From a virus, in IMG/VR virus record IMGVR_UViG_3300007229_000046, positions 1 to 29,765 of that record: a DNA stretch of 29,765 nucleotides; one strand, written 5' to 3'. The position numbers were made by a program, and so were the translations under genes. Below are positions 11,283-23,562 of the stretch, piece by piece. The number at the start of each line of letters is the position of its first letter. The stretch's first letter is position 1. Below the pieces are notes generated by a model. That model saw nothing but the letters and a program-made list of their open reading frames with translations, ran no database searches and was not told where the DNA came from.

Positions 11283-11285
11283 CGT

Positions 11286-11950: not shown

Positions 11951-11992
11951 AGGGAAAGTCGCTACTTTTAGGGCCCCCCGTCACGACATAAC

Positions 11993-12014
11993 TACGACGT
12001 CGCGTAGATAATAT
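11993..12014 (+). promoter_or_regulatory. Two-block element, copy 1
   Basis: TACGA, eight bases, AGATAATAT; it merges with an ATATATAT box and lies 24 bases ahead of the first rightward ATG at 12039. The final base differs from the consensus A. Confidence 0.55.
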
Positions 12015-12038
12015 ATATATAACAAACAAACAAACAAC

Positions 12039-12254
12039 ATGAACAACAACGATACCGAAAGAAATTTCTACACCAATTATCTCTGCTCATTCTACACGCA
12101 TGATCAACTCGATAAGTACTGCACTGCTACACTGTCAATAATGTACAAATCAATTCGAGGCCCATTCATCAACGAGCCTAATCCATTCTCCAACGTGTAC
12201 ACATGTCCAGCCACTGGCCAGCAACACAAAGGAAATACGAACCATAACGGATAA
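12039..12254 (+). CDS. Hypothetical early protein, 71 residues
   Basis: First rightward gene. It starts after an A/C-rich leader (ACAAACAAACAAACAAC) and has an N-terminal Asn/Asp cluster, several Tyr and Cys residues and CPATGQQHKG near the end. No family recognised. Small, unrelated early proteins at the start of a phage early region often act on host functions, which is a general expectation and not shown here. Confidence 0.6.
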   Translation: MNNNDTERNFYTNYLCSFYTHDQLDKYCTATLSIMYKSIRGPFINEPNPFSNVYTCPATGQQHKGNTNHNG

Positions 12255-12257
12255 TAA
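12236..12257 (+). promoter_or_regulatory. Two-block element, copy 2
   Basis: TACGA, eight bases, GGATAATAA, ending four bases before the ATG at 12262. It overlaps the end of the preceding coding region. Confidence 0.6.
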
Positions 12258-12261
12258 AGAT

Positions 12262-12393
12262 ATGAATAACAACATCCAACTACTGATGAGATCACCACTC
12301 GTCTCGCTGATCAAGCATTTCCTTTGGTGTATGGTATATGTGGCAGTATTGCTAACATTCCTCGCGGCAGCGTGTCATCTTCACGATATGTAA
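12262..12393 (+). CDS. Small single-span membrane protein
   Basis: 43 residues. After a short polar N-terminus and a basic turn (SLIKH) comes one membrane segment, about residues 20-37 (FLWCMVYVAVLLTFLAAA), and a short tail CHLHDM. Its start is set by the two-block element four bases upstream. Unknown role; it may act on the host envelope early in infection. Confidence 0.6.
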   Translation: MNNNIQLLMRSPLVSLIKHFLWCMVYVAVLLTFLAAACHLHDM

Positions 12394-12500
12394 GTCAAGT
12401 AACTTTCAACTTAAAATGAAAGTACACTTTGAGAGAGTGCGGAGTAACTCTTCTAAATAATACTCAACTAAACAAGTGTGCTACTTTTGCACAACATAAA

Positions 12501-12522
12501 TACGAAACCCAATAGATAATAA
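12501..12522 (+). promoter_or_regulatory. Two-block element, copy 3
   Basis: TACGA, eight bases, AGATAATAA, 26 bases before the ATG at 12549. The gap 12394-12548 that holds it also contains a small hairpin (TGTGC...GCACA around 12477-12494) and no gene. Confidence 0.6.
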
Positions 12523-12548
12523 GTCTATAACAATTTAAATCTTTTACA

Positions 12549-12779
12549 ATGTCAAATGTAATCCAATCAAAGCGCTTTGTCGTGCGCCAATCACTAATCG
12601 GCAAGAATCAAGTTATCGAGGTAACTTTCAAGAGTGGCAACACTGTAACTTATAACCACGATGTCGCTTTCGAGATCATGAAAGATAAGCTAGAAACTCT
12701 GCCATGCTGGTTAAAGTTCAAAAGCTACACTGCTAGCGGCAATATTCCAAAAGTGTTGCGCGACCAAAAGTTAGTGTAA
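12549..12779 (+). CDS. Hypothetical early protein, 76 residues
   Basis: Basic protein with beta-strand pattern in the first half (RFVVRQSLIGKNQVIEVTFKSGNTVTYNHD) and a helix (VAFEIMKDKLETLPCWLKF) in the second. Family not recognised. It precedes a long non-coding stretch with a tRNA-like element. Confidence 0.65.
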   Translation: MSNVIQSKRFVVRQSLIGKNQVIEVTFKSGNTVTYNHDVAFEIMKDKLETLPCWLKFKSYTASGNIPKVLRDQKLV

Positions 12780-12854
12780 CCACTCTTCTTAACTGCAGTC
12801 GGTGTTGAGCAATCGCCTTAACGACTATAAATAATATGAGCATGCGATTAACAT

Positions 12855-12988
12855 ACACCTCCTCATGGGAGAGGCGTGTGAATGATTAAAAGGGTAAAAC
12901 GCAGTAAGGTTGTTTCTCTGCAGACAGCAGCCTGACCTGCAGCCGGTTTTAACGTCACGCGACGAAGGTTCGACTCCTTCGGGGTGTA
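12855..12988 (+). ncRNA. tRNA-like element with enlarged middle
   Basis: The 3' part is clear: T arm GAAGG-TTCGACT-CCTTC at 12964-12980 and acceptor strand GGGGTGT at 12981-12987. The only upstream partner for the acceptor is ACACCTC at 12855-12861 (six Watson-Crick pairs and one wobble). Just after it, CATG/CGTG (12864-12867 with 12875-12878) can form a D-like stem. Between the D-like stem and the T arm lie about 85 bases in place of an anticodon arm, containing two CTGCAG palindromes. No standard anticodon arm could be found. It may be a degenerate tRNA or a tRNA-like RNA with an inserted domain. The surrounding gap 12780-12990 holds nothing else. Confidence 0.45.
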
Positions 12989-12990
12989 CT

Positions 12991-13167
12991 ATGGATATAA
13001 GTTTAATAATACTAGCTCTTGAAACTCTGCAAGAGCAAGTCAGTGACGCGATGTCAGTTGACGAACAAGCAGAAGACAGAGATAGATTTAACCGCATCAA
13101 GCGCGAGATCGAGCTATTTAAAGCAGAGCAAATCATTGCTATGTTCACAAACAAAACACGAGAGTAA
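12991..13167 (+). CDS. Hypothetical helical protein, 58 residues
   Basis: Starts at 12991 (MDISLIILALE); an in-frame extension upstream to 12910 would be translation of the tRNA-like element and is rejected. The protein is one long acidic/basic helix (LETLQEQVSDAMSVDEQAED, then RFNRIKREIELFKAEQ). Unknown function. Confidence 0.6.
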   Translation: MDISLIILALETLQEQVSDAMSVDEQAEDRDRFNRIKREIELFKAEQIIAMFTNKTRE

Positions 13168-13178
13168 GCAGATAATAA
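13157..13178 (+). promoter_or_regulatory. Two-block element, copy 4
   Basis: CACGA, eight bases, AGATAATAA, ending four bases before the ATG at 13183; its first block lies in the end of the preceding gene. Confidence 0.6.
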
Positions 13179-13182
13179 AGAT

Positions 13183-13458
13183 ATGAAACAAAGTAATGAA
13201 TTTAAGACAAACTTCTGGTGCGGCGTAACAGCAGAGTACAAGAAGCAAAGCGATGGCTGGTGGTCAGTACACTGCCGCGATGCAAATGGTGGCAACGAAG
13301 GCCGATGGTTCAAGCATCTTACCGAATGCGAAGAGTTCACGGCAGAGTTCAAGCTGCCTGAGAATATCGCTAAACGTAAGCGTTCGCTTGACTTATTCAG
13401 CAATTACGTTATGTCTTCAACTCGTAACTATAAAGGATATCGTGATGGCCTTGACTAA
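13183..13458 (+). CDS. Hypothetical early protein, 91 residues
   Basis: Aromatic-rich first half (NFWCGVTAEYKKQSDGWWSV) and a charged second half ending YRDGLD. No family recognised. It sits directly behind a two-block element. Confidence 0.65.
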   Translation: MKQSNEFKTNFWCGVTAEYKKQSDGWWSVHCRDANGGNEGRWFKHLTECEEFTAEFKLPENIAKRKRSLDLFSNYVMSSTRNYKGYRDGLD

Positions 13459-13591
13459 ACAACAGCAGCAAATCAGGTGTCAAATAGTATTAGACGACTT
13501 GTTAATGGTTGAGTTCGACGACTTCATGTACGGACTCGACAAGAAAAACGGCCTTATGCCATCACATGAATATAACACTAAAGTAAAGTAA
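13445..13591 (+). CDS. Hypothetical early protein, 48 residues
   Basis: Start at 13445 (MALTKQQQQIR), overlapping the previous stop by 14 bases; a longer frame from 13253 overlaps that gene almost fully and is rejected. Helical, acidic, with VLDDLLMVEFDDFMYGL. Unknown. Confidence 0.6.
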   Translation: MALTKQQQQIRCQIVLDDLLMVEFDDFMYGLDKKNGLMPSHEYNTKVK

Positions 13592-13592
13592 T

Positions 13593-13838
13593 ATGACACA
13601 AGATAAAGAGTGGTATTTAGTCCACGATCTCGCAGCAGCGATTAACAAAGGCAATAAAATGGCGTGCTTACGCATTAACGGAGGTAAAGACTCGACTAAC
13701 TTCACAGGTTTTGACATCCAAGTGAAAATGCCTATCGCTGGAACGTGGAACTGCGCTTACGATGCTGCTAAGTACTTACTAAACGACGTGCGATCTAGCT
13801 TCAGCACGACTACTATTGAATACTCATCTTCTTGGTAG
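13593..13838 (+). CDS. Hypothetical early protein, 81 residues
   Basis: Small alpha/beta protein (WYLVHDLAAAINKGNKMACLRINGG, then DAAKYLLNDVRSSFSTTTIEYSS). It starts one base after the previous stop, so it is probably co-translated. No family recognised. Confidence 0.65.
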   Translation: MTQDKEWYLVHDLAAAINKGNKMACLRINGGKDSTNFTGFDIQVKMPIAGTWNCAYDAAKYLLNDVRSSFSTTTIEYSSSW

Positions 13839-13851
13839 ATTACAAAATAAA

Positions 13852-13873
13852 CACGATAACTAACAGATAATAA
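13852..13873 (+). promoter_or_regulatory. Two-block element, copy 5
   Basis: CACGA, eight bases, AGATAATAA, preceded by ACAAAATAAA; the ATG at 13878 follows after four bases. Confidence 0.6.
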
Positions 13874-13877
13874 AGAC

Positions 13878-13973
13878 ATGAAACAATTCTTCTACAACAA
13901 CGCAGTGCCATTCGTGCTGCTCACGCACACTACTTTCGTAGTAACAGTATGCATAACCGCTATAACACAGTAA
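13878..13973 (+). CDS. Small membrane peptide, 31 residues
   Basis: A reading frame set by a two-block element four bases upstream. It has one hydrophobic segment (about residues 9-29: AVPFVLLTHTTFVVTVCITA). Too short for most gene finders; unknown role. Confidence 0.5.
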   Translation: MKQFFYNNAVPFVLLTHTTFVVTVCITAITQ

Positions 13974-13977
13974 TAAT

Positions 13978-14127
13978 ATGGACTATAAAACAATGTTCGA
14001 TCTTGCCATGGAGCAAAACGATTACCTTCTCAACGAACTAGAGTATAGCGAGGTAAAAGTAGAAAGTTTAGAAAGACAAATCAGAGAGTCACGCGACTTT
14101 CAAGAAGCACTCACATCTCTACTATGA
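13978..14127 (+). CDS. Hypothetical coiled-coil protein, 49 residues
   Basis: Acidic and helical (MDYKTMFDLAMEQNDYLLN, then EVKVESLERQIRESRDF). Its TGA overlaps the next ATG by four bases (ATGA), which supports it as a real gene. Confidence 0.6.
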   Translation: MDYKTMFDLAMEQNDYLLNELEYSEVKVESLERQIRESRDFQEALTSLL

Positions 14128-14366
14128 CTAATATCACAAACGAGCAGCATGAATTGCCAGGCGACGTCAAGTGGTACTACGTAACACTGTTAGATTTTAC
14201 TACAGGCGACGTATTTCACTACAAAATCACGGAAGATCAAGTAATGCTAACCGACACCGATGGCGTAAGACACGCGCTCGACCAAATCCACCGACAAAAC
14301 CACAGGTATGAGTTTATGCTACACGAGCAACCTCATCCTACTTACACAGAAATACTACAACTATGA
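14124..14366 (+). CDS. Hypothetical early protein, 80 residues
   Basis: Beta-rich start (VKWYYVTLLDFTTGDVFHYKI) followed by a helix and a His-rich tail (HRYEFMLHEQPHPTYTE). Coupled to both neighbours by four-base overlaps. Family not recognised. Confidence 0.65.
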   Translation: MTNITNEQHELPGDVKWYYVTLLDFTTGDVFHYKITEDQVMLTDTDGVRHALDQIHRQNHRYEFMLHEQPHPTYTEILQL

Positions 14367-14953
14367 ATGATTATCAAAGACAAGCAATGCGTTATCGGTG
14401 CGAGCCCGTGCAAAAAAATGCAATACGAGATGTATACGCAAAAGCACACGAAGGCCTATCGTGGACAAACAACGCTGAAAACACTTCTCAAGCTATCTAC
14501 AGCATGCGAAACGGTAACTCTATCATCTTAAAGCATTTCCTACAAGATCTAGGTTGGCAAGATATATCTACAAATGCACAGGTTAAAAACGGTACAACCG
14601 TCTTTGCTGTAGGCACGCCAAATTACGAAGGCTGTAGAATGCGCCAAGTTAAAATCGCTAGCTACAACAGTGGTTATATCCGCAAGTTTGTAGGCTATAG
14701 CGGCGCACACTATCAGCTAAACAAGACTTTTCTTCAAAACCACCTTATCTGGTCAAGCTGGTCTAAAAAATACTACAATCAAACTCGAAGTGTGCGTATT
14801 CTAATACCAGCTGAAGTCGATCGACTTATTGCATTGCTTAACCACGTTGTCAACGAGTTGTACAATCAAGATACTGCTCGACAGACAGTTCAAGCCTTCA
14901 AAGACTTGCTTAATGACGAATATGGCGTTTCTCGCCGCAAAACCAACGTATAA
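14363..14953 (+). CDS. Hypothetical early protein, 196 residues
   Basis: Basic protein. The first half is helical with NAENTSQAIYSMRNGNS; the middle has alternating strands (VKNGTTVFAVGTPNYEG, RMRQVKIASYNSGYIRKFV); the end is a long helix (VDRLIALLNHVVNELYNQD) and a basic tail SRRKTNV. No catalytic motif seen. Its stop shares one base with the next ATG. Confidence 0.7.
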   Translation: MNDYQRQAMRYRCEPVQKNAIRDVYAKAHEGLSWTNNAENTSQAIYSMRNGNSIILKHFLQDLGWQDISTNAQVKNGTTVFAVGTPNYEGCRMRQVKIASYNSGYIRKFVGYSGAHYQLNKTFLQNHLIWSSWSKKYYNQTRSVRILIPAEVDRLIALLNHVVNELYNQDTARQTVQAFKDLLNDEYGVSRRKTNV

Positions 14954-15246
14954 TGGCTAAAATAAACAAACAAATAGCGTTTAATAACTCCTTAAAGGAG
15001 CTCGCTGAAGAAGCTGCCGTAGAAATATACCATGAAGCGTATGATCTCGTTAGTGACAAAATGTACGAAGAAGCTATATTAGACAGGGAAGCGTTTGAAG
15101 TTGCACCGTTTGAAAAATATGAAGTCGAAGCGTTTCCTGTAGAAGGCAATAAAGTTTTTGCAACTGCTATAGATGATTTTGTTAGACACTTAGCTAATGA
15201 GTTACACTCTATACGTTTAGAAAACAATACCCAGCATTACGGCTAA
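14953..15246 (+). CDS. Hypothetical acidic protein, 97 residues
   Basis: Glu/Asp/Ala-rich helical protein (LKELAEEAAVEIYHEAYDLV, then AIDDFVRHLANELHSIR) with a middle strand pair (VAPFEKYEVEAFPVEGNKVF). Its acidity would suit a nucleic-acid mimic or inhibitor, but no evidence is in the sequence beyond charge. Confidence 0.65.
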   Translation: MAKINKQIAFNNSLKELAEEAAVEIYHEAYDLVSDKMYEEAILDREAFEVAPFEKYEVEAFPVEGNKVFATAIDDFVRHLANELHSIRLENNTQHYG

Positions 15247-15261
15247 GAAACACAAAATAAA

Positions 15262-15283
15262 CACGAACTAACACAGATAATAA
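15262..15283 (+). promoter_or_regulatory. Two-block element, copy 6
   Basis: CACGA, eight bases, AGATAATAA, preceded by ACAAAATAAA and followed after four bases by the ATG at 15288. Confidence 0.6.
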
Positions 15284-15287
15284 TATT

Positions 15288-15497
15288 ATGAAATGCAAAT
15301 GTAACACCCTAATTCCAGAAGGCAGGTTAAAACTAGGCTATAAAGTCTGTGTTAACTGTTCGACTGTTGAGCGATATGGCTGCGCGCCATTAATAAACCA
15401 CAAAACTGGTAACTCTATTCAGATCATGTCACGTGGCGATGCAGCTCGCATTGCTAAAATGACACGGCGAAAAGGTTACGGAACAATGCTACGATGA
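15288..15497 (+). CDS. Small zinc-ribbon-like protein
   Basis: 69 residues with four cysteines in a zinc-binding layout: CKC at 3-5 and CVNC near 21-24. The C-terminal half is basic (SRGDAARIAKMTRRKGYG). It may bind nucleic acid or a host protein such as RNA polymerase. The metal site is inferred from the spacing. Confidence 0.6.
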   Translation: MKCKCNTLIPEGRLKLGYKVCVNCSTVERYGCAPLINHKTGNSIQIMSRGDAARIAKMTRRKGYGTMLR

Positions 15498-15664
15498 AGG
15501 ACGCGCGTAAATACAGCCTTAAACCAGACTTTTTACCTAGAGAGTTCGATACCATAGAAGATTTAGTGCAATATGTGCTAGATCATGGTGTCGACCCAAG
15601 CTACGAGATCACGCACGGAGGTGTAGATACAGGTGAAAAAGCAATAGACTTCATAGTGTGCTAA
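15494..15664 (+). CDS. Hypothetical early protein, 56 residues
   Basis: Starts inside the end of the previous gene (ATGA overlap). Sequence LKPDFLPREFDTIEDLVQYV then HGVDPSYEITHGGVDTGEK. Unknown; the four-base overlap supports it. Confidence 0.6.
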   Translation: MKDARKYSLKPDFLPREFDTIEDLVQYVLDHGVDPSYEITHGGVDTGEKAIDFIVC

Positions 15665-15677
15665 GTCACAAAACAAA

Positions 15678-15699
15678 CACGATCACTAATAGATAATAA
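15678..15699 (+). promoter_or_regulatory. Two-block element, copy 7
   Basis: CACGA, eight bases, AGATAATAA, with an A/C-rich leader ACAAACAAACAAA before the ATG at 15717, similar to the leader of the first rightward gene at 12039. Confidence 0.6.
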
Positions 15700-15716
15700 T
15701 AATACAAACAAACAAA

Positions 15717-16124
15717 ATGGAAATGCCATCACAAAACGAAACACCTAGTGAAGTCTACGACACTTGGATAAGAGAGCTAACAGCAGCAAAACAAAAGCTA
15801 ACAGATGAACTTTATTCAGTAACAGCTGAAATTAGCGCCGCAGAGCAAGAAAAACAAAAAGCACTCAAACTTAGCGTTCCTGAAAGCTTAGTAGAGCATA
15901 TTGCAGAGCAGGTGCAAGCTTCAGTTGACGCGTTTTTTGACGCCGCGCAAGACGAGCCTGATATGTTCGATATTGAGCTGTCGATGGGTTACGATAACAA
16001 GGTAGAAATATGCAATATAGATCTGTCATCTCTTAACATACCTGTTGAAGACTTTGTCGTAGCGGCTTTTGAAGACGAGTGTGTAATCACAACTCCTGCT
16101 GATGCCAGTGCTCTCAAAAGTTGA
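15717..16124 (+). CDS. Hypothetical coiled-coil acidic protein, 135 residues
   Basis: N-terminal coiled coil (about 12-50: TWIRELTAAKQKLTDELYSV, TAEISAAEQEKQKAL) followed by an acidic alpha/beta half (VDAFFDAAQDEPDMFDIELS, then VEICNIDLSSLNIPVEDFV). No family recognised. Confidence 0.65.
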   Translation: MEMPSQNETPSEVYDTWIRELTAAKQKLTDELYSVTAEISAAEQEKQKALKLSVPESLVEHIAEQVQASVDAFFDAAQDEPDMFDIELSMGYDNKVEICNIDLSSLNIPVEDFVVAAFEDECVITTPADASALKS

Positions 16125-16176
16125 ACTATGGTTCAATAAGAACTTTGGCTGGTTCTTTAAAAACGGAAATAAATAA
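16102..16176 (+). CDS. Possible 24-residue peptide
   Basis: A short frame overlapping the previous gene's end (MPVLSKVELWFNKNFGWFFK, then NGNK), amphipathic with many aromatics. It may be a real coupled peptide or chance; evidence is only position and overlap. Confidence 0.3.
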   Translation: MPVLSKVELWFNKNFGWFFKNGNK

Positions 16177-16378
16177 CGCGACGGCGTAAGGTGTACTTAT
16201 GAAGGGCTAATCCTGCAAAGGTGAAATACAGCGCTGTAGTATACAACGGGCGTGGGTGTATGTACGACACCGTGATGTCACATGTAAGTACGACACAGGT
16301 AGCTCCTGTATTGCAGACACACGTTACGCACTGGCTTTGATTTATGGTCGCATAAATAGTGAGGTCAGTGCTTTTTAT
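16177..16378 (+). ncRNA. Structured non-coding stretch before tRNA-Arg
   Basis: No convincing gene. It contains a 12-base palindrome TACAGCGCTGTA (16227-16238), a five-base stem GGTGT/ACACC with a seven-base loop (16255-16271), ACAGG/CCTGT with a five-base loop (16294-16308), a repeat of GTACGACAC (16262 and 16288), and a terminator-like double stem at 16328-16376. The density of stems suggests one or more small RNAs or decayed tRNAs, transcribed with the tRNA that follows. Confidence 0.4.
16328..16376 (+). terminator. Terminator-like double hairpin
   Basis: Outer stem GCACTG (16328-16333) with CAGTGC (16366-16371); inner stem ATTTATG (16340-16346) with CATAAAT (16351-16357) around a GTCG loop; then TTTTT. 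It could end the preceding RNA or be part of a structured RNA read through into the tRNA two bases later. Confidence 0.45.
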
Positions 16379-16452
16379 AACCCTGTAGCTCAACTGGATA
16401 GAGCATCGCCCTTCTAAGGCGACGGTTAAGAGTTCGAATCTCTTCAGGGTTA
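16379..16452 (+). tRNA. tRNA-Arg (anticodon TCT)
   Basis: Full cloverleaf by hand: acceptor AACCCTG/CAGGGTT, D stem GCTC/GAGC, anticodon stem TCGCC/GGCGA around CTTCTAA, variable CGGTT, T stem AAGAG/CTCTT around TTCGAAT. Length 74 including the discriminator A; CCA is not encoded. TCT reads AGA, a codon that these phage genes use often, which is a usual reason for a phage to carry this tRNA. Confidence 0.95.
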
Positions 16453-16457
16453 CACAT

Positions 16458-16534
16458 AGACAAGTATCTCCTCAAGCTTATACCTTGTAGAAAGAGTAGC
16501 TGGTCACACGTGGGTTCAAGTCCCACCTTGTCTA
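16458..16534 (+). tRNA. tRNA-like, non-standard anticodon region (degenerate?)
   Basis: Acceptor stem AGACAAG/CTTGTCT is perfect over seven pairs, and the T arm GTGGG-TTCAAGT-CCCAC is perfect. The 45 bases between them give no normal D stem (no GG in the loop) or anticodon stem; only GTAT/ATAC (16464-16467 with 16480-16483) and AGCT/AGCT pairings appear. It may be a decaying tRNA or a tRNA-like RNA. It lies five bases after tRNA-Arg. Confidence 0.5.
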
Positions 16535-16543
16535 CAAAACAAA

Positions 16544-16565
16544 TACGATAACTAACAGATAATAA
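16544..16565 (+). promoter_or_regulatory. Two-block element, copy 8
   Basis: TACGA, eight bases, AGATAATAA, starting ten bases after the tRNA-like element and nine bases before the ATG at 16575. Confidence 0.6.
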
Positions 16566-16574
16566 TAATAAAAA

Positions 16575-16940
16575 ATGGCATTAACATGGGACGTAACAGG
16601 TGTAGAAAACGCCTGGTCAAAAACAGAAAAACCAGAAGGCAACGAGATTCAGTTCTTTCAAATACCCTTCTACGAAGAAGACGGTCAGCGCTATGAGATG
16701 AACGAGATGCTTCATTACGCGCTAATGTCTACTATGACAGTAGGTATTGCCGAGATCACGAATAAAAACTATACCAAGTTTTACAACCGTGTAATCCACT
16801 TAAACCAAGTGCGGTGCGTTGAAACTCACGCGTCTATCACGTTAGAGGCTATAAAAAAATGCATCGGCTTGAAAACCAACGCTGAAACCATGACAAAATC
16901 TCAATTTGTCAAGAGAAGCACTAAATTCTTAGATCTTTAA
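16575..16940 (+). CDS. Hypothetical conserved-looking phage protein, 121 residues
   Basis: Begins MALTWDVTGVENAW; the first half has aromatic strands (NEIQFFQIPFYEEDGQRYEM) and the second is helical (ITLEAIKKCIGLKTNAETM). I recall MALTWDVT-type starts in marine phage proteins of unknown role. No enzyme motif. Its stop overlaps the next ATG by one base. Confidence 0.7.
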   Translation: MALTWDVTGVENAWSKTEKPEGNEIQFFQIPFYEEDGQRYEMNEMLHYALMSTMTVGIAEITNKNYTKFYNRVIHLNQVRCVETHASITLEAIKKCIGLKTNAETMTKSQFVKRSTKFLDL

Positions 16941-17107
16941 TGAAAAAAGTAAAATTTCTAGAGCGTCATCTTTATGCGCCCGAACTAAACAAGCTATGGT
17001 ATAATGATAATACTTATAAAAAAGTACCTCAATGCACGACTATCGAAGAAGCAGAGAACCACGCAAGACTCGAAACCGCTATTAACCGCACAGACAAATA
17101 CTTCTAA
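16940..17107 (+). CDS. Hypothetical early protein, 55 residues
   Basis: Basic protein (MKKVKFLERHLYAPELNKLW) with helix TIEEAENHARLETAIN at the C-terminus. TAATG coupling with the upstream gene favours this frame over the competing one that starts at 17004. Confidence 0.6.
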   Translation: MKKVKFLERHLYAPELNKLWYNDNTYKKVPQCTTIEEAENHARLETAINRTDKYF

Positions 17108-17231
17108 TGGAATAAAAATAAAAACAACCGTAACTGTAAACCCAGCTAAAAACTTTAACGAGTGGGCTCAAGGTATACACGCGCAGATCGACAAGAACTA
17201 CAAAAACAAAATTAACAATAATGGAAAATAA
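17004..17231 (+). CDS. Hypothetical protein with uncertain start
   Basis: The part from about 17110 on (IKIKTTVTVNPAKNFNEWAQ, then GIHAQIDKNYKNK) reads like a real small protein, and its stop overlaps the next ATG. The only ATG in frame is 17004, which would overlap the 55-residue gene by 104 bases. The true start may be a non-ATG codon near 17107. Confidence 0.4.
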   Translation: MIILIKKYLNARLSKKQRTTQDSKPLLTAQTNTSNGIKIKTTVTVNPAKNFNEWAQGIHAQIDKNYKNKINNNGK

Positions 17232-17391
17232 TCAAAAATACAAAGCGTACGAGCGAGTACGCGTGTCAGGCGTTACTAATATGTTTGACGTACGTACAGT
17301 AGGAATGCTATCGGGGTTAAGCCGAGAAGACATACTGGACGTTATGCACAACTACAGCGAATACAGAACCCTATATGAAGTAAACAAATGA
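17221..17391 (+). CDS. Hypothetical early protein, 56 residues
   Basis: MENNQKYKAYERVRVSGVTN then TVGMLSGLSREDILDVMHNY: a possible short helix-turn-helix (LSGLSREDILDVM), not convincing alone. Overlaps the genes on both sides by short stretches (ATGA at 17388). Confidence 0.6.
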   Translation: MENNQKYKAYERVRVSGVTNMFDVRTVGMLSGLSREDILDVMHNYSEYRTLYEVNK

Positions 17392-17734: not shown

Positions 17735-17738
17735 AAAC

Positions 17739-18230
17739 ATGAGCATCAGGAAAAAAGTATTGATAAGGTTTGCCGACAGGCGCGCGGCTGTGGCTTTTAA
17801 TTTTCATCCACAGAACTTCTTCTTAGAGGTTGAGTTAAACACGACAGATTGTCTAGAGTCTGTTCGCCAGAGAGTTGCCAGCGTGGCAACAGACAAGGCT
17901 TGGAGAGAGAAAAACATGGGCACTTTTGTCACTGAAAGCGTTATTGGGCTTAGCTTTAATATAGGTTTTCCTAATGATAGAATAAGAATAACAGGTAGAT
18001 CAACCGCGGCAGGGGAAATCGACAAAGCTTTTGGCTGTGATGAAGTTGTATACGTCTGGTTTAAAGACACAACAGAGTTTATTAAAGACGGCTTAGATGC
18101 CAAGTTCGCCCGATGGGATTGGTTGCAAAGCAATAATATACCTTGGATAAGCTGTTTTAACGGCCAGCACGGCCAGCGCTGCACAGTTGTTTCATCAGCT
18201 GTAAAGCTTTCACCTGTAATGTACTTGTAA
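17739..18230 (+). CDS. Hypothetical protein, 163 residues
   Basis: Alpha/beta pattern: VLIRFADRRAAVAFNFH, a helix at CLESVRQRVASVATDKAW, strands at VIGLSFNIGFPNDRIRITG, and a C-terminal part ISCFNGQHGQRCTVVSSAV. No family recognised. A two-block element follows the gene directly. Confidence 0.7.
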   Translation: MSIRKKVLIRFADRRAAVAFNFHPQNFFLEVELNTTDCLESVRQRVASVATDKAWREKNMGTFVTESVIGLSFNIGFPNDRIRITGRSTAAGEIDKAFGCDEVVYVWFKDTTEFIKDGLDAKFARWDWLQSNNIPWISCFNGQHGQRCTVVSSAVKLSPVMYL

Positions 18231-18241
18231 CACATAATAAA

Positions 18242-18263
18242 TACGAATAACCATGGATAATAA
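18242..18263 (+). promoter_or_regulatory. Two-block element, copy 9 (spans a start codon)
   Basis: TACGA, eight bases, GGATAATAA. Here the second block begins at the G of the ATG at 18253, so the element overlaps the start of the coding region. This differs from the other copies, where the start lies downstream. Confidence 0.5.
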
Positions 18264-18558
18264 AGATGACGATCTTGAAAGAGAACAAGACATTGAAGAT
18301 CTGGCCAACAGAATAGTAGGTAAGATAATGAAGATAAAAGCGTTAAGTGGCAAAGAATCGCAATACGCGTCGACTGAAGATCCGTTAGAAATGCTCGTAC
18401 CTAACGTACCTAGGCTGTACAAGATGTATGGCGAGCTAGCAAAGCTTATGACTTTTCTAGGTTTGTTTGAAGAAGACGAAGAGTATGAAAAATGCGCTGA
18501 AATAAAAGAAAGAATAATGATGATAAATAAAATACTAGAGAAATATGATGAGATATAA
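18253..18558 (+). CDS. Hypothetical acidic helical protein, UVR-like motif
   Basis: 101 residues. The segment EDEEYEKCAEIKERIMMINK resembles the UVR motif of UvrB/UvrC ('y.kAaelRd.I'), a helical protein-binding hairpin. The N-terminus is very acidic (MDNKDDDLEREQDIEDLANR). It may bind a repair or replication partner; only the motif resemblance supports this. It overlaps the ligase start by 14 bases. Confidence 0.65.
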   Translation: MDNKDDDLEREQDIEDLANRIVGKIMKIKALSGKESQYASTEDPLEMLVPNVPRLYKMYGELAKLMTFLGLFEEDEEYEKCAEIKERIMMINKILEKYDEI

Positions 18559-19447
18559 ACCAATGCTAGCGCATAAGTTTGACAAAAAAAAAGTTGACTG
18601 GAAATCACGAACAACGTTTATGCAACCAAAACTAGATGGCGTGCGTTGTTTAATACAGTATGATAAAGATAAAAAAGCTGTAACTGCTTACTCTAGAACA
18701 GGTAAGCCATGGCTAAACATAGACCACATTTTACAAGATCTTGAACCAATGTTCAAAGGTTTACCAGACGTTGTTCTCGACGGCGAGCTTTACAACCACG
18801 AGTTAAAGAACGACTTCGAAAAAATCATATCGCTTGTAAGAAAGAAAAAACCAAAACCCGAAGACAGAGAAGAGTCTAAGCAACTAGTACAGTTTCACTG
18901 CTACGACGTTATCGAAGGCGATCCTACTCACGAATTAAACGCTAGGTTTGACGCGCGTAACACTTTTCTAAATATAATAGTAAAACCAAGCCAGTGCGTT
19001 CGCATTGTAGAAACAATCAACCTATACCAAAGTCAAAGCTCTTGGCAAATTCACGTAGAATACGGTAATCCCAGAGCGCTTGCGTTGCATAAAAAGTGGC
19101 TAAAGCAAGGCTACGAAGGTTCTATACTGCGCTTAAACGGCGTATACGAACAAAAGCGATCACACAGCTTGCAGAAGTTCAAAGACTTCCATGACACCGA
19201 AGCAGAAATCGTCGGTTGGGTTGAAGGCAAAGGCAAACGCGTAGGCACTGTCGGTAAGTTCTTAGCCCGTGATTCTGAAGGCATTGAATTTGGTATGCCT
19301 GTCATGGAAAACTTTAGCTACCTACAGTCTAACTTCAAAGAAATGCAAGGCTGGATCGGCAAGACCGCTACTTTCACTTACTTCGAACGTACTAAAGCAA
19401 ACAGCTACAGACACCCACTATTTAAATGCATCCGCGACTATGAATAA
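18545..19447 (+). CDS. ATP-dependent DNA ligase
   Basis: Seals nicks in phage DNA during replication and recombination. 300 residues. The adenylated lysine lies in motif I, QPKLDGVR (K29). Motif III is VVLDGELYN, motif IV EGSILRLNG and motif V LQKFKDF; the C-terminal OB fold starts near EAEIVGWVEGKGKRVGTVG. The size fits compact phage and viral ATP ligases. The first ATG (18545) gives MMR; the second Met at 18548 is equally possible. Neighbouring genes are replication and repair type. Confidence 0.92.
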   Translation: MMRYKPMLAHKFDKKKVDWKSRTTFMQPKLDGVRCLIQYDKDKKAVTAYSRTGKPWLNIDHILQDLEPMFKGLPDVVLDGELYNHELKNDFEKIISLVRKKKPKPEDREESKQLVQFHCYDVIEGDPTHELNARFDARNTFLNIIVKPSQCVRIVETINLYQSQSSWQIHVEYGNPRALALHKKWLKQGYEGSILRLNGVYEQKRSHSLQKFKDFHDTEAEIVGWVEGKGKRVGTVGKFLARDSEGIEFGMPVMENFSYLQSNFKEMQGWIGKTATFTYFERTKANSYRHPLFKCIRDYE

Positions 19448-19592
19448 TAAACTACACGACTGTGCCATGCTGCTAGAAAATGCAGGCTTTTGGCTAAAAA
19501 CAACACATAATAAACCTAAAGACTTACATTTCTTAATAAAAGAAATAGAAACCTTATACCAAGAATACATAAATGAGACGACTAATATATGA
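19440..19592 (+). CDS. Hypothetical helical protein, 50 residues
   Basis: Starts inside the ligase end (overlap of 8 bases). Helical: LHDCAMLLENAGFWLKTTHN and LHFLIKEIETLYQEYIN. A longer frame from 19269 lies over ligase sequence and is rejected. Unknown role. Confidence 0.55.
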   Translation: MNNKLHDCAMLLENAGFWLKTTHNKPKDLHFLIKEIETLYQEYINETTNI

Positions 19593-19683
19593 CATGTACT
19601 ACGCCGACGAGATCAGCGTGGAAATAGCAGAACGATTACTAGATAAACTAAATGAAGTTAGAAACAAACGCAAAGGCTATTAA
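19573..19683 (+). CDS. Hypothetical helical protein, 36 residues
   Basis: MRRLIYDMYYADEISVEIAE then RLLDKLNEVRNKRKGY: overlaps both neighbours by short stretches, consistent with the compact chain of small genes. Unknown. Confidence 0.45.
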   Translation: MRRLIYDMYYADEISVEIAERLLDKLNEVRNKRKGY

Positions 19684-19897
19684 GAAATTTTTTAACCGTT
19701 GGTTAGAGTTTACTACCCTTGATATAAAGTCATGGGAATCAGTTAAGGCTGATTTAGAAAGCCAAAGGCTAGTGGTTGACTTCTTACGTAAAGACTTAAA
19801 AAAAGCTAACGCTCAGATTGATTTTTGCAGAAAGAAGATAAGAGTTTTAACTCAAGCTAAAAAAAACAACGAAAAGTCATTTGACATAATAGATTAA
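19652..19897 (+). CDS. Hypothetical coiled-coil protein, 81 residues
   Basis: Basic coiled coil with heptads (about 25-70: WESVKADLESQRLVVDFLRK, DLKKANAQIDFCRKKIRVLT). Overlaps the preceding small gene by 32 bases. Function unknown. Confidence 0.6.
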   Translation: MKLETNAKAIKKFFNRWLEFTTLDIKSWESVKADLESQRLVVDFLRKDLKKANAQIDFCRKKIRVLTQAKKNNEKSFDIID

Positions 19898-19898
19898 C

Positions 19899-20375
19899 AT
19901 GAATATATTTTATCTCCATGAAGACCCAAAAAAAGCAGCTGAATATCAGTATAACAAGCACGTTGTTAAAATGATCTTAGAATCAGCTCAGATGCTATGT
20001 ACAGCTCATCACTTGCTAGATGGACCTGATGCAGATGTGCCATACAAGATTGCTCACAAGAACCACCCGTCTACCGTGTGGGCAAGGCAGTCATCGCAGA
20101 ATTACGCCTGGCTTTACTACCACATGGTAGCTCTAGGTGATGAGTACACGAAACGCTACGGTAAAACACATTTAACAATAAAAAAGTGTAAAGACAAACT
20201 TGCTAAGCTGCCTGGAGGTATATTCTACACAGGTTTTGAACAACCTCCACAGTGTATGCCAGAAGAATACAAAGACAATTGCAGTATAAAAGCCTACTGG
20301 AACTACTACATCGGCGACAAACATAGGGTGGCTAACAACAATGAAACCATTAAGACAAAGATGTATGAACGATAA
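19899..20375 (+). CDS. Conserved phage protein, possible pyrimidine-dimer glycosylase relative
   Basis: 158 residues. It has MNIFYLHEDPKKAAEYQYNK, HVVKMILESAQML, a HKNHPSTVWARQSSQNYAWL stretch, CDEYTKRYGK-like DEYTKRYGKTH, and PPQCMPEEYKDN followed by AYWNYYIGDKHR. I recall similar phage proteins annotated as pyrimidine dimer DNA glycosylase (DenV/endonuclease V type), and the MPEEY...YY end is compatible with that. The catalytic N-terminal Thr of T4 DenV is not present, so the enzymatic role is doubtful. Confidence 0.6.
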   Translation: MNIFYLHEDPKKAAEYQYNKHVVKMILESAQMLCTAHHLLDGPDADVPYKIAHKNHPSTVWARQSSQNYAWLYYHMVALGDEYTKRYGKTHLTIKKCKDKLAKLPGGIFYTGFEQPPQCMPEEYKDNCSIKAYWNYYIGDKHRVANNNETIKTKMYER

Positions 20376-20484
20376 ACTAAAGAAAAGAATCAAGGATTTT
20401 AATGAATGTAATTCTAAAAGAATTATTTTATGCACACTAAAACCGTTAGAGACTGTGACAACAGCCCCTAATAAGAATAAGTAA
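20365..20484 (+). CDS. Hypothetical small basic protein, 39 residues
   Basis: Start at 20365 (MNDKLKKRIKDFNECNSKRI); an earlier in-frame ATG at 20341 would give 47 residues but a larger overlap. Its stop lies within the 19-base sequence shared with the divergent control region. Unknown function. Confidence 0.4.
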   Translation: MNDKLKKRIKDFNECNSKRIILCTLKPLETVTTAPNKNK

Positions 20485-20498
20485 CAGGCTTATGTCAC
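20480..20498 (+). promoter_or_regulatory. 19-base copy of control-region sequence, candidate operator
   Basis: AGTAACAGGCTTATGTCAC includes the ATG of the helix-turn-helix gene (20492). It is the exact reverse complement of 11832-11850 in the divergent control region, which points to a shared binding site and autoregulation. Confidence 0.55.
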
Positions 20499-21115
20499 AA
20501 TACGAAAGAAATTTAGAGTTACTTAACACGATGCGGGTTGTCTACAATCGAGAACCTATCAGCGACGTGCCTACGGTAGAGAACAGCCAATACATGTTCT
20601 TCTCTGACGGTACGCACGAATGCTACTCGTTGTTCAGAAGTAAAGCTAAAATTACTACGTATAAGTCTTTAAAGTGGCATTTATTAGTGCTCTGGTACTT
20701 AAACTCTGATCTAGATCGCGAAGAGTTTCTAAAGATAGTAGATGTATTATCAGAAAAACGCAATGGATTCGTTAGTTTTAGCGTTAACCTAGAGGTGTTA
20801 GACAGGATAGTCAAAGAGATTCACGCGTGTAACTTAAACATCGCGCCTAGAAACAAAATTAGAAAAGTAGTATTTAAAGCTAACTCAGGACTCACGAAAG
20901 AACAAAAACTACGAATCGTCGGTGAGTTAATAGGTAGGGCTAAAAAGATTGATTCTAACGACATTTATTCAGTTATGATAGACTTACATGATAACGGGGA
21001 AAAGATCACAATAGGACGCGTCTCTAGCATCCTAAACGTGTCTTCAAGAACAATACACAGGAACATGCCAGACGAACTCAAGAGAGAAAAAGAAATATTA
21101 AACAGAACATTATAA
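20492..21115 (+). CDS. Helix-turn-helix protein, candidate regulator
   Basis: 207 residues. The N-terminal part is alpha/beta without a known motif. The C-terminal part is a good helix-turn-helix: IYSVMIDLHDNGEKITIGRV, then SSILNVSSRTIHRNMPDELK, where ITIGRVSSILNVSSRTIHRN has the turn and recognition helix. It may regulate phage transcription or initiate replication. The 19-base site at its own start and in the divergent control region makes autoregulation plausible. It is two genes ahead of the sigma factor. Confidence 0.7.
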   Translation: MSQYERNLELLNTMRVVYNREPISDVPTVENSQYMFFSDGTHECYSLFRSKAKITTYKSLKWHLLVLWYLNSDLDREEFLKIVDVLSEKRNGFVSFSVNLEVLDRIVKEIHACNLNIAPRNKIRKVVFKANSGLTKEQKLRIVGELIGRAKKIDSNDIYSVMIDLHDNGEKITIGRVSSILNVSSRTIHRNMPDELKREKEILNRTL

Positions 21116-21116
21116 A

Positions 21117-21395
21117 ATGCAAAATAGAAAAGTAAAAAACCACACGTTTGAATACGTTAAAAACGACAGTGAAGACGTTCACGACGAAATAGGTTTCTAC
21201 CAATGTAGAGGCGCTATGTACTATGACGAAGATCACGACCAAGTTCCTGAACCTAGTCTATGGCAAGCCGCTATAGCGCTAGCAAAAGAATTACGAAAAG
21301 AAGGCTTTGAAGCAGAGCCTGAGCACTCAGAAAAAGGTTGGGTTGAGGTTTACGTGCTAACGTTACCAGAAAAAGAAAAAAACGAAATAGAATGA
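21117..21395 (+). CDS. Hypothetical acidic protein, 92 residues
   Basis: Acidic with a middle CRGAMYYDEDHDQVPEPSLW and an alpha/beta end (ALAKELRKEGFEAEPEHSEK, then GWVEVYVLTLP). No family recognised. It starts one base after the previous stop and overlaps the sigma factor start by four bases. Confidence 0.65.
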   Translation: MQNRKVKNHTFEYVKNDSEDVHDEIGFYQCRGAMYYDEDHDQVPEPSLWQAAIALAKELRKEGFEAEPEHSEKGWVEVYVLTLPEKEKNEIE

Positions 21396-22180
21396 AGAAT
21401 TATAATATACAAAACTACATCCGCTATAAAAACGATGTAGACCGAAGCGTAGGTAGGTTAGAAGGTAAGTTCTGGGACGAGTACAGTCGAGACGAACTGA
21501 TAGTTAAGTTCTTGCCTCTAGTAGAAAATCTAGCAAGAAAGTTCTCTACAGCCCAACAAGCATCCGGTGTTATGGATATAACAGATATAATACAAGAAGG
21601 AAGCAAAGGCTTAGTACAAGCTGTTGACAAGATCAACTGGGAAGTGTTAATGGAATCAAACGATATAGAAAAAACAATCAAATCTTTCTTGTCTAAAAGG
21701 ATAAAAGGCGCAATAAGAAGAGGTATAGATATAAACAGAGGCACGATGCGGATACCTGAGCATAAGCTAAACGAAATAAGACAGGTAGATAAACTAGAAA
21801 AACAAACACCAAATGAATACGACACACCAAATAGCAAGTCTGTTGAAGTTTTTTTTAATTCTATATTCCTCAGTCTTGATAAGCTAGTGGATGACGAATC
21901 AACTCAGTACGACGTGCCTGAGCCTATAGAAGGCTACAACAAAGATCTTTTAAACTCTTACTTGATAGGTATATTAAAAACCCATTTAAACAACAAAGAA
22001 TTTCAAGTTGTAAGATTAAGTTACGGCTTAGATTGCAAGAAGCATTCAGCGGTAGAAATAGCAAAAGAATTAAACATCAAGGGAGATAGCGCTTACGTGC
22101 GTGTTTCGCAGCTTAAAAGACAAGCAATCAATAAACTAATAAACACCGTAGATCACTCGCAAGTGGTTGACCTTCTATAA
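21392..22180 (+). CDS. Sigma-70-family RNA polymerase sigma factor
   Basis: 262 residues. Region 2 is clear: FLPLVENLARKFSTAQQASG, then DITDIIQEGSKGLVQAVDKI, and FLSKRIKGAIRRGID with MRIPEH (region 2.4/3 boundary). The C-terminal region 4 has FQVVRLSYGLDCKKHSAVEI, AKELNIKGDSAYVRVSQLKR, a helix-turn-helix for the -35 element. It would direct host RNA polymerase to phage promoters, probably for the leftward virion genes. Region 1 is missing, as in small alternative sigma factors. Which promoter it reads is unknown. Confidence 0.85.
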   Translation: MKNYNIQNYIRYKNDVDRSVGRLEGKFWDEYSRDELIVKFLPLVENLARKFSTAQQASGVMDITDIIQEGSKGLVQAVDKINWEVLMESNDIEKTIKSFLSKRIKGAIRRGIDINRGTMRIPEHKLNEIRQVDKLEKQTPNEYDTPNSKSVEVFFNSIFLSLDKLVDDESTQYDVPEPIEGYNKDLLNSYLIGILKTHLNNKEFQVVRLSYGLDCKKHSAVEIAKELNIKGDSAYVRVSQLKRQAINKLINTVDHSQVVDLL

Positions 22181-22204
22181 GTTACGGAGTGAAAATACTT
22201 AAAA

Positions 22205-22240
22205 ACCTAAAAAAATGTGTAATTATATATATATAAACCA
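22205..22240 (+). promoter_or_regulatory. Candidate promoter (AT box) before the recombination genes
   Basis: In the 69-base gap 22181-22249, TGTGTAATTATATATATATA is followed by an A/C-rich leader and the ATG at 22250. It resembles the AT boxes in the divergent region and at 8202-8212. Confidence 0.45.
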
Positions 22241-22249
22241 AACACCAAA

Positions 22250-22804
22250 ATGAAAGACTTAAACGAAAAACTGGCGCAAGTCCAGACAAAACTAAAAGCT
22301 AAAAAATCTAGCTACAATTCGTTTGGCAAATATTATTTCCGTAAAGCGGAAGATATTCTAGAGGCAACAAAGCCTTTTCTAGTCGAGTTAGGAATCACAG
22401 TCACGATTAAAGAATCGATCGTAATGACTGATCCTGTGCCAATACTCGAAACAACAGCAATTTTCTCGGATGGAGTAGATCAGATAACTGCAACAGCAGT
22501 GGTCGGTGTTGACTTGTCTCAAAAAGGAATGCAAACGTCACAGCAGTTTGGCGCCGCATCATCTTATGGCAAGAAGTATGCCTTAGGCAACTTGTTTCTA
22601 ATCGACGACACAGCAGATTCAGACTCCACAAACAAACACGGTAAAGATGCGCCGGCACCAAAGCAGAAAGTAGAAAAAACAGAATTAAAAGGAAATGATT
22701 TAGAAAAAGCAAAAGCATATATACAAGGTGGCGGCAATATTGAAGCTATTAAACAAAAATACAAACTCTCTCCTGAAATAGAAAGCGAGTTAACCAAGCT
22801 ATGA
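22250..22804 (+). CDS. ERF-family single-strand annealing protein
   Basis: Anneals complementary single strands during phage recombination and repair. 184 residues. The core has YYFRKAEDILEATKPFLVEL and the family signature QFGAASSYGKKYALGNLFLI, followed by DDTADSD. The C-terminal 60 residues are a variable Lys-rich tail with a small helical domain (LEKAKAYIQGGGNIEAIKQK). The next gene, a RecE-like exonuclease, starts at its last codons; exonuclease and annealing protein usually work as a pair. Confidence 0.88.
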   Translation: MKDLNEKLAQVQTKLKAKKSSYNSFGKYYFRKAEDILEATKPFLVELGITVTIKESIVMTDPVPILETTAIFSDGVDQITATAVVGVDLSQKGMQTSQQFGAASSYGKKYALGNLFLIDDTADSDSTNKHGKDAPAPKQKVEKTELKGNDLEKAKAYIQGGGNIEAIKQKYKLSPEIESELTKL

Positions 22805-23535
22805 ATAAAGAAATATACGAGAGGTTAAAGAACGACGAGGATTACTACGGTAAGTTTGGTCAACAATTCTTAAGCAACTCAAACATAAGCACACTGTTAA
22901 AAAACCCATTACAATTACATGAACCAACTCCAAGCATACCAGCATTTTTAGTCGGTGGATACTTCCACACAGCTATACTAGAACCAGACAAACTAAAGTC
23001 TTTTAAAATAGTTGAGGCTACCTCAAGAAACACAAAAGCATACAAAGAGATATCTAACGGAGAACTCTGCTTGCTTCAACACGAGGTAGACAAGATCGAG
23101 GTCATGACCAAGAAGCTTTTAGAAAACAACATATGTAGAGACCTAATACAACCTTTACTGGGTAACGTAGAGTACGAACAACCATCAGTAACAAAGCTCT
23201 TTAATAACATGTGGAAAGGCAAGGCAGACATAGTTAATCACGATGAAAAACTAGTGATTGACTTAAAGACAACGGCTGATATAGATAAATTCAGGTGGTC
23301 TGCTTCTAAATACAACTACGACAGTCAGGCTTATATATACCGAAAGTTATTCGGTTACGATATGCTTTTCATAGCAATGGACAAAAGTACTAATCAAATA
23401 GGCTTGTTCGAATGCTCTTCTGAGTTTTATAGATCAGGAGAAAGAAAAGTAGAGAAAGCAAGCGAAGTATATGATTTATTTTTTAAAACAGAAAACTTCG
23501 ACCACAAACAACACTTAATCACATCCACGTTATAA
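22801..23535 (+). CDS. RecE/RecB-like PDDEXK exonuclease
   Basis: Processes double-stranded ends to provide single strands for the ERF protein. 244 residues. The nuclease core is WKGKADIVNHDEKLVIDLKT (D of KADIV, then D and K of VIDLKTT), followed by SKYNYDSQAYIYRKLFG, where the Q and Y fit the RecB-type motif. The N-terminal part (ISTLLKNPLQLHEP..., GGYFHTAILEPDKL) matches the usual lid region with an HTAILEP motif. A two-block element follows the stop. Confidence 0.85.
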   Translation: MNKEIYERLKNDEDYYGKFGQQFLSNSNISTLLKNPLQLHEPTPSIPAFLVGGYFHTAILEPDKLKSFKIVEATSRNTKAYKEISNGELCLLQHEVDKIEVMTKKLLENNICRDLIQPLLGNVEYEQPSVTKLFNNMWKGKADIVNHDEKLVIDLKTTADIDKFRWSASKYNYDSQAYIYRKLFGYDMLFIAMDKSTNQIGLFECSSEFYRSGERKVEKASEVYDLFFKTENFDHKQHLITSTL

Positions 23536-23536
23536 A

Positions 23537-23558
23537 TACGAACACAAACAGATAATAA
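23537..23558 (+). promoter_or_regulatory. Two-block element, copy 10
   Basis: TACGA, eight bases, AGATAATAA, four bases before the ATG at 23563. It lies 5.3 kb from the previous copy and ahead of the replication genes. Confidence 0.6.
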
Positions 23559-23562
23559 AAAT

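What the first reader, a model, noticed from the sequence alone, without database searches (positions are those of the whole stretch)
11993..23558. Ten copies of a two-block element YACGA-N8-RGATAATA with constant spacing
Seen: ten sites with the same 8-base gap, all on the rightward strand, preceded in most by ACAAAATAAA-like sequence. Five end just four bases before an ATG, three lie further upstream (9, 17 and 26 bases), one spans a start codon and one merges with an AT box. The last base varies once. Within the leftward genes I found none. Inference: GATAAT could be a -10 box, which would make many of these transcripts leaderless; or it is a translation element for a host that uses little Shine-Dalgarno. 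Repeating in front of tiny genes, it may be a phage-specific early promoter.
Basis: partly seen in the sequence, partly recalled or inferred. Interest (0 to 1): 0.8.

Follow-up and report, generated by a model that had tools for sequence, protein, structure and literature searches.

The report
Phage sigma factor's own promoters
The ten repeats are almost certainly transcription start signals used by a sigma factor that this marine phage carries itself, part of a large undescribed family of phages of Bacteroidota-like hosts, and about half of the ten probably start the messenger RNA exactly on the start codon.

Summary
Observation confirmed: ten exact sites, all on the + strand, none expected by chance. 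Numbered from that purine as +1, GATAAT is the -10 box, TACAAA a -35 box with a rigid 19-bp spacer, and YACGA a third block inside the spacer. The window encodes a sigma70-family protein (21392-22180). Loci fetched only by this sigma gene carry the element upstream of it (478 sites/1.0 Mb upstream, 6 antisense/2.1 Mb). Related phages without this sigma lack it, and no T7-type polymerase was found. So these are promoters of a phage-encoded sigma factor acting with host core polymerase (inferred, not measured). Five window promoters would make leaderless mRNAs. Across the family the -10 box is fixed, while the -35 and YACGA blocks switch between lineages without tracking sigma region 4, so who reads them is open. 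The base before GATAATA is genome-specific, suggesting co-evolution with a trans-acting factor. Known kind of system, new and unusually strict variant; no description found in the papers searched.

The parts
11982..12019 (+). Promoter 1: -35-like CACGAC 11982-11987, YACGA 11993-11997, -10 GATAATA 12007-12013, predicted +1 12019; 20-nt leader to ATG 12039 (weakest upstream block)
   Evidence: (25.1 bits)
12225..12262 (+). Promoter 2: CACAAA 12225-12230, TACGA 12236-12240, -10 12250-12256, +1 = A of ATG 12262 (leaderless, 43 aa)
12490..12527 (+). Promoter 3: CACAAC 12490-12495, TACGA 12501-12505, -10 12515-12521, +1 12527; 22-nt leader to ATG 12549
13146..13183 (+). Promoter 4: CACAAA 13146-13151, CACGA 13157-13161, -10 13171-13177, +1 = A of ATG 13183 (leaderless, 91 aa)
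13841..13878 (+). Promoter 5: TACAAA 13841-13846, CACGA 13852-13856, -10 13866-13872, +1 = A of ATG 13878 (leaderless, 31 aa)
15251..15288 (+). Promoter 6: CACAAA 15251-15256, CACGA 15262-15266, -10 15276-15282, +1 = A of ATG 15288 (leaderless, 69 aa)
15667..15704 (+). Promoter 7: CACAAA 15667-15672, CACGA 15678-15682, -10 15692-15698, +1 15704; 13-nt leader to ATG 15717
16533..16570 (+). Promoter 8: TACAAA 16533-16538, TACGA 16544-16548, -10 16558-16564, +1 16570; 5-nt leader to ATG 16575 (best score, 40.7 bits)
18231..18268 (+). Promoter 9: CACATA 18231-18236, TACGA 18242-18246, -10 18256-18262, +1 18268; overlaps the ATG of ORF 18253-18558, so a transcript from here would lack that ATG
   Evidence: sequence
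23526..23563 (+). Promoter 10: CACGTT 23526-23531, TACGA 23537-23541, -10 23551-23557, +1 = A of ATG 23563 (leaderless, 79 aa)
21392..22180 (+). Phage sigma70-family factor, 262 aa: region 2 (about 33-116), 3.0-like RIPEH (120-130), region 4 (about 198-252); proposed reader of the -10 box
   Evidence: PHROG 351 E 9e-21; TIGR02937 52.2 bits vs cut-off 42.9; PDB profile hits to SigA/FliA; AF2 model matches sigmaA holoenzymes
20492..21115 (+). Conserved 207-aa protein (p207) with C-terminal HTH, found in 120 of 132 sigma loci, usually directly upstream of sigma; possible co-factor, role unresolved

Best explanation
Each site is a promoter recognised by host core RNA polymerase carrying the phage's own sigma factor (ORF 21392-22180). 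Domain 2 of that sigma would read and melt GATAAT as the -10 box (-12 to -7). Transcription would start at the purine 6 nt further on (+1 = 12 nt after the G). [T/C]ACAAA (-37 to -32) is the -35 box, and YACGA (-26 to -22) is a third contact in the spacer, read by sigma or by a helper. The promoters switch on many small genes and the replication module of the rightward arm, probably after the sigma factor has been made early in infection. At five window sites +1 coincides with the A of the ATG, so those mRNAs would be leaderless. Shown: the site anatomy, its rigidity, its strand bias and its linkage to the sigma gene. Inferred: sigma-DNA recognition, transcription start sites, timing and leaderless translation.
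For: 1) Ten sites against zero expected; one strand; upstream of small genes. 2) Independent linkage: loci fetched only by the sigma protein (132 non-redundant) carry 478 sites in 1.007 Mb upstream, 23 in 0.971 Mb downstream, 6 in 2.08 Mb antisense, and 1 with the pattern reversed. 3) In reverse, 32 of 50 motif-bearing records encode this sigma at 49-69% identity; at least 12 of the 18 others end within 3.3 kb past the last site (positions). 4) The sigma is almost absent elsewhere (one weak hit in 50,697 phage records); the complete relative MW202828 and 50 kb of an Elemovirus have no site. 5) Promoter anatomy: +1 purine 657/662, -10 GATAATA in 258/265 given the upstream blocks, TACAAA-N19-GATAATA 345 against 3 or fewer at any other spacing. 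6) ATGs at +1 nearly always open an ORF of 35 aa or more (102 of 106), while ATGs at -2, outside the transcript, are mostly dead (13 of 172 open; 114 stop within two codons). 7) The -13 base is genome-specific: MI 1.38 bits, shuffles mean 0.52, max 0.68 of 2000. 8) Sites sit directly before the sigma gene itself in several phages. 9) No single-subunit RNA polymerase in the 57 related phage records searched, with T7 as positive control.
Against: No transcript 5' end has been mapped and no host is in culture. Spacing of 19 bp, with almost no tolerance, is longer and stricter than usual for sigma70 promoters. The -35 and YACGA blocks change completely between lineages (TACAAA, TCGAAA, CACGGA, AATAAG...) without tracking sigma region 4 (Mantel r -0.03), so sigma region 4 is probably not the sole reader. 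A few motif-bearing contigs (e.g. G035, G043) lack the sigma without an obvious truncation. The sigma is below Pfam's gathering scores for regions 2 and 4. A giant structural protein of unknown function could in principle hide a divergent RNA polymerase.
Confidence: 0.88

Rival explanations
1. T7-like single-subunit RNA polymerase promoters: AAATACGA...GATAATA resembles T7 TAATACGACTCACTATAGGGAGA, with +1 at the G of GATAATA.
For: TACGA aligns with T7 -14 to -10 and G with +1; the absolute rigidity of spacing is T7-like.
Against: No PF00940 match in 57 related phage records, some 60-79 kb long, while the same search finds T7 RNAP at 1e-110. The purine at +12 and the ATG peak there fit a -10 box, and sigma linkage is strong.
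Confidence: 0.03
2. A translation-initiation element or mRNA leader signal, like the Start Associated Sequences of Cluster K mycobacteriophages (PMC3203893).
For: Near start codons; Bacteroidota lack Shine-Dalgarno sequences (PMC6847099); A-rich downstream stretch.
Against: Distance from the element to the ATG runs from 5 to over 60 nt; conserved bases reach 37 bp upstream of the predicted start; ATG at +1 implies the element is not in the mRNA; no Shine-Dalgarno-like core; a sigma gene, not a ribosomal factor, is linked.
Confidence: 0.03
3. Operator or 'stoperator'-like binding site for a phage regulator that tunes transcription from other promoters (as in L5-type phages).
For: Many asymmetric copies in one orientation near gene starts; the upstream blocks evolve independently of sigma region 4; conserved HTH neighbour p207.
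Against: The composite -35/-10/+1 geometry with 99% purine at +1; no integrase or repressor seen among the window proteins searched; linkage to the sigma gene.
Confidence: 0.04
4. Promoters of the host's primary sigma factor.
For: GATAAT resembles TATAAT of proteobacterial sigma70.
Against: Bacteroidota sigmaA reads TTTG/TAnnTTTG (PMC6847099); relatives of the same probable host group without the phage sigma have no site; the -13 base and -35 block are phage-specific.
Confidence: 0.02

Closest known systems
phiEco32 gp36 and 7-11 gp47 sigma factors and their promoters (PMC8948821)
   Same: Phage-encoded sigma directing host RNAP to phage-only promoters placed through the genome; start 6-9 nt from the -10-like element
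   Different: phiEco32 uses one element (tAATGTAtA), 7-11 a bipartite GTAAtg-16-aCTA with eight sites; unrelated sequences; here three blocks, 19-bp spacer, Bacteroidota-type phages, many leaderless starts
FliA/sigma28 promoters (TAAA-N15-GCCGATAA, from memory)
   Same: GATAA-type -10; sigma region 2.4 RI[K/R]GA resembles FliA (own comparison from memory); PDB profile hit to FliA 1rp3
   Different: -35 differs; best family scores are RpoD/SigA-like, FliA/WhiG model only 41 of 190 bits
T4 middle promoters with MotA (from memory; review PMC2988021 listed but not read)
   Same: -10 box plus an extra conserved block inside the usual spacer read by a phage protein - what it may work like
   Different: No MotA homologue identified; here the phage brings its own sigma
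Start Associated Sequences and extended SAS of Cluster K mycobacteriophages (PMC3203893)
   Same: One-orientation repeats near start codons of non-structural genes; subcluster-specific variants
   Different: SAS carries a Shine-Dalgarno core and is proposed for translation; here promoter geometry
Bacteroidota sigmaA promoters (PMC6847099, PMC9723704)
   Same: Likely host machinery; leaderless mRNAs exist (5.5% in F. psychrophilum)
   Different: Consensus TTTG/TAnnTTTG is unrelated to TACAAA/GATAATA

Membership tests
sigma70-type promoter of a phage-encoded sigma | -10 hexamer with A-11 and T-7 conserved | tested here: met
   GATAAT; 264/265 A at -11, 258/265 T at -7 when selected only on upstream blocks
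sigma70-type promoter of a phage-encoded sigma | -35 box 16-18 bp upstream | tested here: inconclusive
   TACAAA present but at 19 bp, with almost no length variation
sigma70-type promoter of a phage-encoded sigma | Purine start site 6-8 nt after the -10 | tested here: met
   657/662 purine at that position by sequence; 5' ends not mapped
sigma70-type promoter of a phage-encoded sigma | Sigma gene in the same genomes | tested here: met
sigma70-type promoter of a phage-encoded sigma | Transcription by the sigma-core holoenzyme | not testable with these tools
   needs in vitro transcription or infected-cell RNA
sigma70 protein superfamily | Regions 2 and 4 recognisable | tested here: met
   TIGR02937 above cut-off, PHROG 351, AF2 fold matches sigmaA; Pfam regions 2 and 4 below gathering score
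T7-like RNAP promoter | Single-subunit RNAP encoded by the phage | tested here: not met
   with T7 control
Bacteroidota sigmaA promoter | TTTG / TAnnTTTG | tested here: not met
   consensus differs
Leaderless genes | Start codon at the transcript 5' end | tested here: inconclusive
   ATG at predicted +1 in 5/10 window sites and 55/662 sites in 34/95 genomes; transcripts not mapped
Start Associated Sequence (Cluster K) | Shine-Dalgarno core 3-7 nt before ATG | tested here: not met
   no AGGAG; distance 5 to over 60 nt

The most novel reading that the evidence does not exclude
Promoter choice is split between two phage proteins: a conserved sigma that reads only the fixed -10/+1 part, and a separate, fast-evolving DNA-binding protein that covers TACAAA and YACGA (one helical turn apart on the same DNA face) and re-specifies the upstream half in each phage lineage, giving orthogonal promoter sets between co-infecting phages. 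The HTH neighbour p207 is one candidate, but it is absent in the TCGAAA-type clade and in L274/L262, so another factor is possible.
Probability: 0.3. Interest if true: 0.78.

Novelty: new variant of a known kind. Interest (0 to 1): 0.64.

Why it matters
It gives a transcription programme to a large, almost uncultured group of phages found in metagenome-derived viral contigs (at least 366 sigma relatives in IMG/VR), and predicts start sites to the base. The motif is specific enough to recognise members from a few kilobases. The family offers a natural experiment in promoter-sigma co-evolution: hundreds of sites, one fixed -10 box, and upstream blocks that switch between lineages. The strict geometry suggests an orthogonal expression system for Bacteroidota. 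The enriched leaderless starts bear on how ribosomes that ignore Shine-Dalgarno sequences pick starts.

Tried and rejected
T7-like promoter idea: attractive by sequence, rejected after PF00940 searches with T7 as positive control. ATG peak at offset 10: looked like gene starts, but most are ATGTAA start-stops lying outside the predicted transcript. YACGA as the -35 box: rejected, because it is missing in about a dozen sigma-bearing genomes while TACAAA-19-GATAATA stays. p207 as reader of TACAAA or YACGA: absent in all six TCGAAA genomes, but also in L274/L262 which keep TACAAA, so unresolved. Sigma residue I129M with -13 = T: 5 of 6 genomes, but too few independent origins to test. Column covariation of sigma or p207 with the -35 class: hits exist but are confounded by descent; overall distances do not track. 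Host identification from bacterial genomes: only short contigs in MAGs, probably mis-binned phage. Host-type TAHHTTTG promoters in the window: no excess over shuffles. A crAss-type giant RNA polymerase in two near-complete relatives: no family hit for the one giant protein scanned and no shared DxDxD motif. Literature: no paper on this motif or sigma found in the held library.
Full report
CHECK. The pattern YACGA-N8-RGATAATA is present ten times, exactly, only on the + strand, between 11993 and 23557; shuffled sequence gives none, and relaxing to two mismatches adds only chance hits. The window is a 29.8-kb IMG/VR virus fragment. Leftward genes (terminase, portal, GroEL/GroES and other structural or accessory genes) fill 1-11762; rightward small genes plus ligase, Erf, exonuclease and primase-helicase fill the rest. 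Closest named relatives by terminase are MW202828 (63%), Flavobacterium elemo phages (44%) and Cellulophaga phages (37%), so the host is probably a Bacteroidota bacterium (inference).

THE ELEMENT IS LONGER. A pattern scan of IMG/VR found it in at least 117 stretches. In 50 source records it lies on one strand (one exception), and the reversed control pattern never occurs. Aligning 320, then 611 distinct sites shows conservation from TACAAA at offset -25 to a purine at offset +12, counted from the G of GATAATA. Taking +12 as +1, GATAAT is at -12 to -7, YACGA at -26 to -22 and TACAAA at -37 to -32.

THE SIGMA FACTOR. ORF 21392-22180 is a sigma70-family protein (AF2 model mean pLDDT 79.5 with sigmaA holoenzymes as top fold matches). 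It has homologues at 49-69% in 32 of 50 motif-bearing records. At least 12 of the 18 records without it break off within 3.3 kb downstream of their last site, where the gene would lie (positions). Among 50,697 phage records only one weak hit exists. The test was then turned round: loci were fetched by sigma protein only, reduced to 132 non-redundant ones, and scanned. Sites: 478 in 1.007 Mb upstream of sigma, 23 in 0.971 Mb downstream, 6 in 2.08 Mb antisense, 1 for the reversed pattern. Of 90 loci with at least 6 kb upstream, 74 have two or more sites. The complete sigma-less relative MW202828 and 50 kb of an Elemovirus have none even at 8 bits, where window sites score 25-41.

GEOMETRY. Spacing is rigid: TACAAA-N19-GATAATA 345 times against at most 3 at any other spacing from 14 to 25; [T/C]ACGA-N9-GATAATA 420 times against at most 2. 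Selecting sites on the upstream blocks alone, GATAATA follows in 258 of 265. In 662 genome-consistent sites of 95 phages the +1 base is A or G in 657, and the -1 base is a pyrimidine in 463. ATG at +1 opens an ORF of 35 aa or more in 102 of 106 cases, whereas ATG two bases earlier opens one in 13 of 172. That is expected if RNA starts at +1 and the earlier ATG is never transcribed. The leader-length distribution is bimodal: 0 nt (55 sites in 34 genomes) and 20-24 nt (145 sites). In the window, sites 2, 4, 5, 6 and 10 have ATG at +1; sites 1, 3, 7 and 8 have leaders of 20, 22, 13 and 5 nt; site 9 starts inside ORF 18253. In cultured flavobacteria leaderless mRNAs are a minority (5.5%, PMC9723704).

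WHAT VARIES. The base before GATAATA (-13) is A, G, C or T but largely consistent within a genome (e.g. 8/8 T in L150, 9/9 C in L170): MI 1.38 bits against a shuffled mean of 0.52 and maximum of 0.68 in 2000. Since the neighbouring N8 differs between these sites, this is not recent copying; it suggests a trans-acting reader that changes. In about a dozen sigma-bearing genomes YACGA is absent while TACAAA-19-GATAATA remains. Others keep YACGA but have TCGAAA, AATAAG or TATAAG in place of TACAAA, or have CACGGA without YACGA. The -10 box stays the same in these, though those sites were found through GATAATA. The switches do not follow sequence distance in sigma region 4 (r -0.03) or p207 (r -0.04). 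The two blocks are about one helical turn apart.

p207. A 207-aa protein with a C-terminal HTH (Pfam HTH_11 in 43 of 46 members, below the family cut-off for the window member) sits next to sigma in most genomes. It has no convincing PDB fold match. It is missing from the six TCGAAA genomes, but also from L274 and L262 which keep TACAAA. Its role is open.

ALTERNATIVES. The T7-promoter likeness (TAATACGA...G) was tested and fails for lack of a polymerase: PF00940 finds T7 RNAP but nothing in 57 related phage records. Two near-complete relatives (66.7 and 70.7 kb) show no recognisable RNA polymerase gene, though their giant protein remains uncharacterised. A translation element is inconsistent with the variable ATG distance. 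Host sigmaA promoters have another consensus (PMC6847099).

MECHANISM. Shown: anatomy, rigidity, strand bias, sigma linkage, genome-specific -13 base. Inferred: the sigma binds host core RNAP, reads GATAAT, initiates at +1, and drives the small-gene/replication arm, probably as a middle regulon; sites directly before the sigma gene in L170, L175, L210 and L214 suggest positive feedback there. No experiment has been done.

KNOWN OR NEW. Phage sigma factors with their own promoters are a known kind; phiEco32 and 7-11 are experimentally mapped examples (PMC8948821). This sigma family, its three-block promoter and its leaderless use were not found in the searched literature, which lacks most subscription journals. 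I rate it a new variant of a known kind.

Noticed in passing
window 12852-12993 (+): tRNA-like structure: T-arm GAAGG-TTCGACT-CCTTC and an acceptor-like stem closing about 135 nt, with a very long central arm; RNA fold z = -3.56, 0 of 200 shuffles as good; not called by ARAGORN or Rfam.
   Followed up: partly
window 16458-16537 (+): Second tRNA-like stretch (AGACAAG...CTTGTCT with T-arm GTGGG-TTCAAGT-CCCAC) next to the genuine tRNA-Arg(tct) 16379-16453; not called, weak fold otherwise.
   Followed up: partly
window 18253-18558 (+): ORF whose ATG lies within the promoter at 18242; transcripts from that promoter would lack the ATG, so it needs read-through, an internal start, or is misannotated.
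   Followed up: no
window 8232-10041 (-): Phage-encoded GroES-like and GroEL genes within the leftward arm, shared with MW202828 and elemo phages.
   Followed up: no
window 19899-20375 (+): Pyrimidine-dimer DNA glycosylase (Pyr_excise) homologue, in about 74% of sigma-bearing loci.
   Followed up: no
window 28896-29765 (+): Start of a B12-dependent (class II) ribonucleotide reductase running off the contig end; relatives carry RNR genes in the same arm.
   Followed up: no
L352 929-9265 (relative G015): Giant 2778-aa protein (a 3224-aa one in G048) with no PHROG or Pfam match; function unknown.
   Followed up: partly
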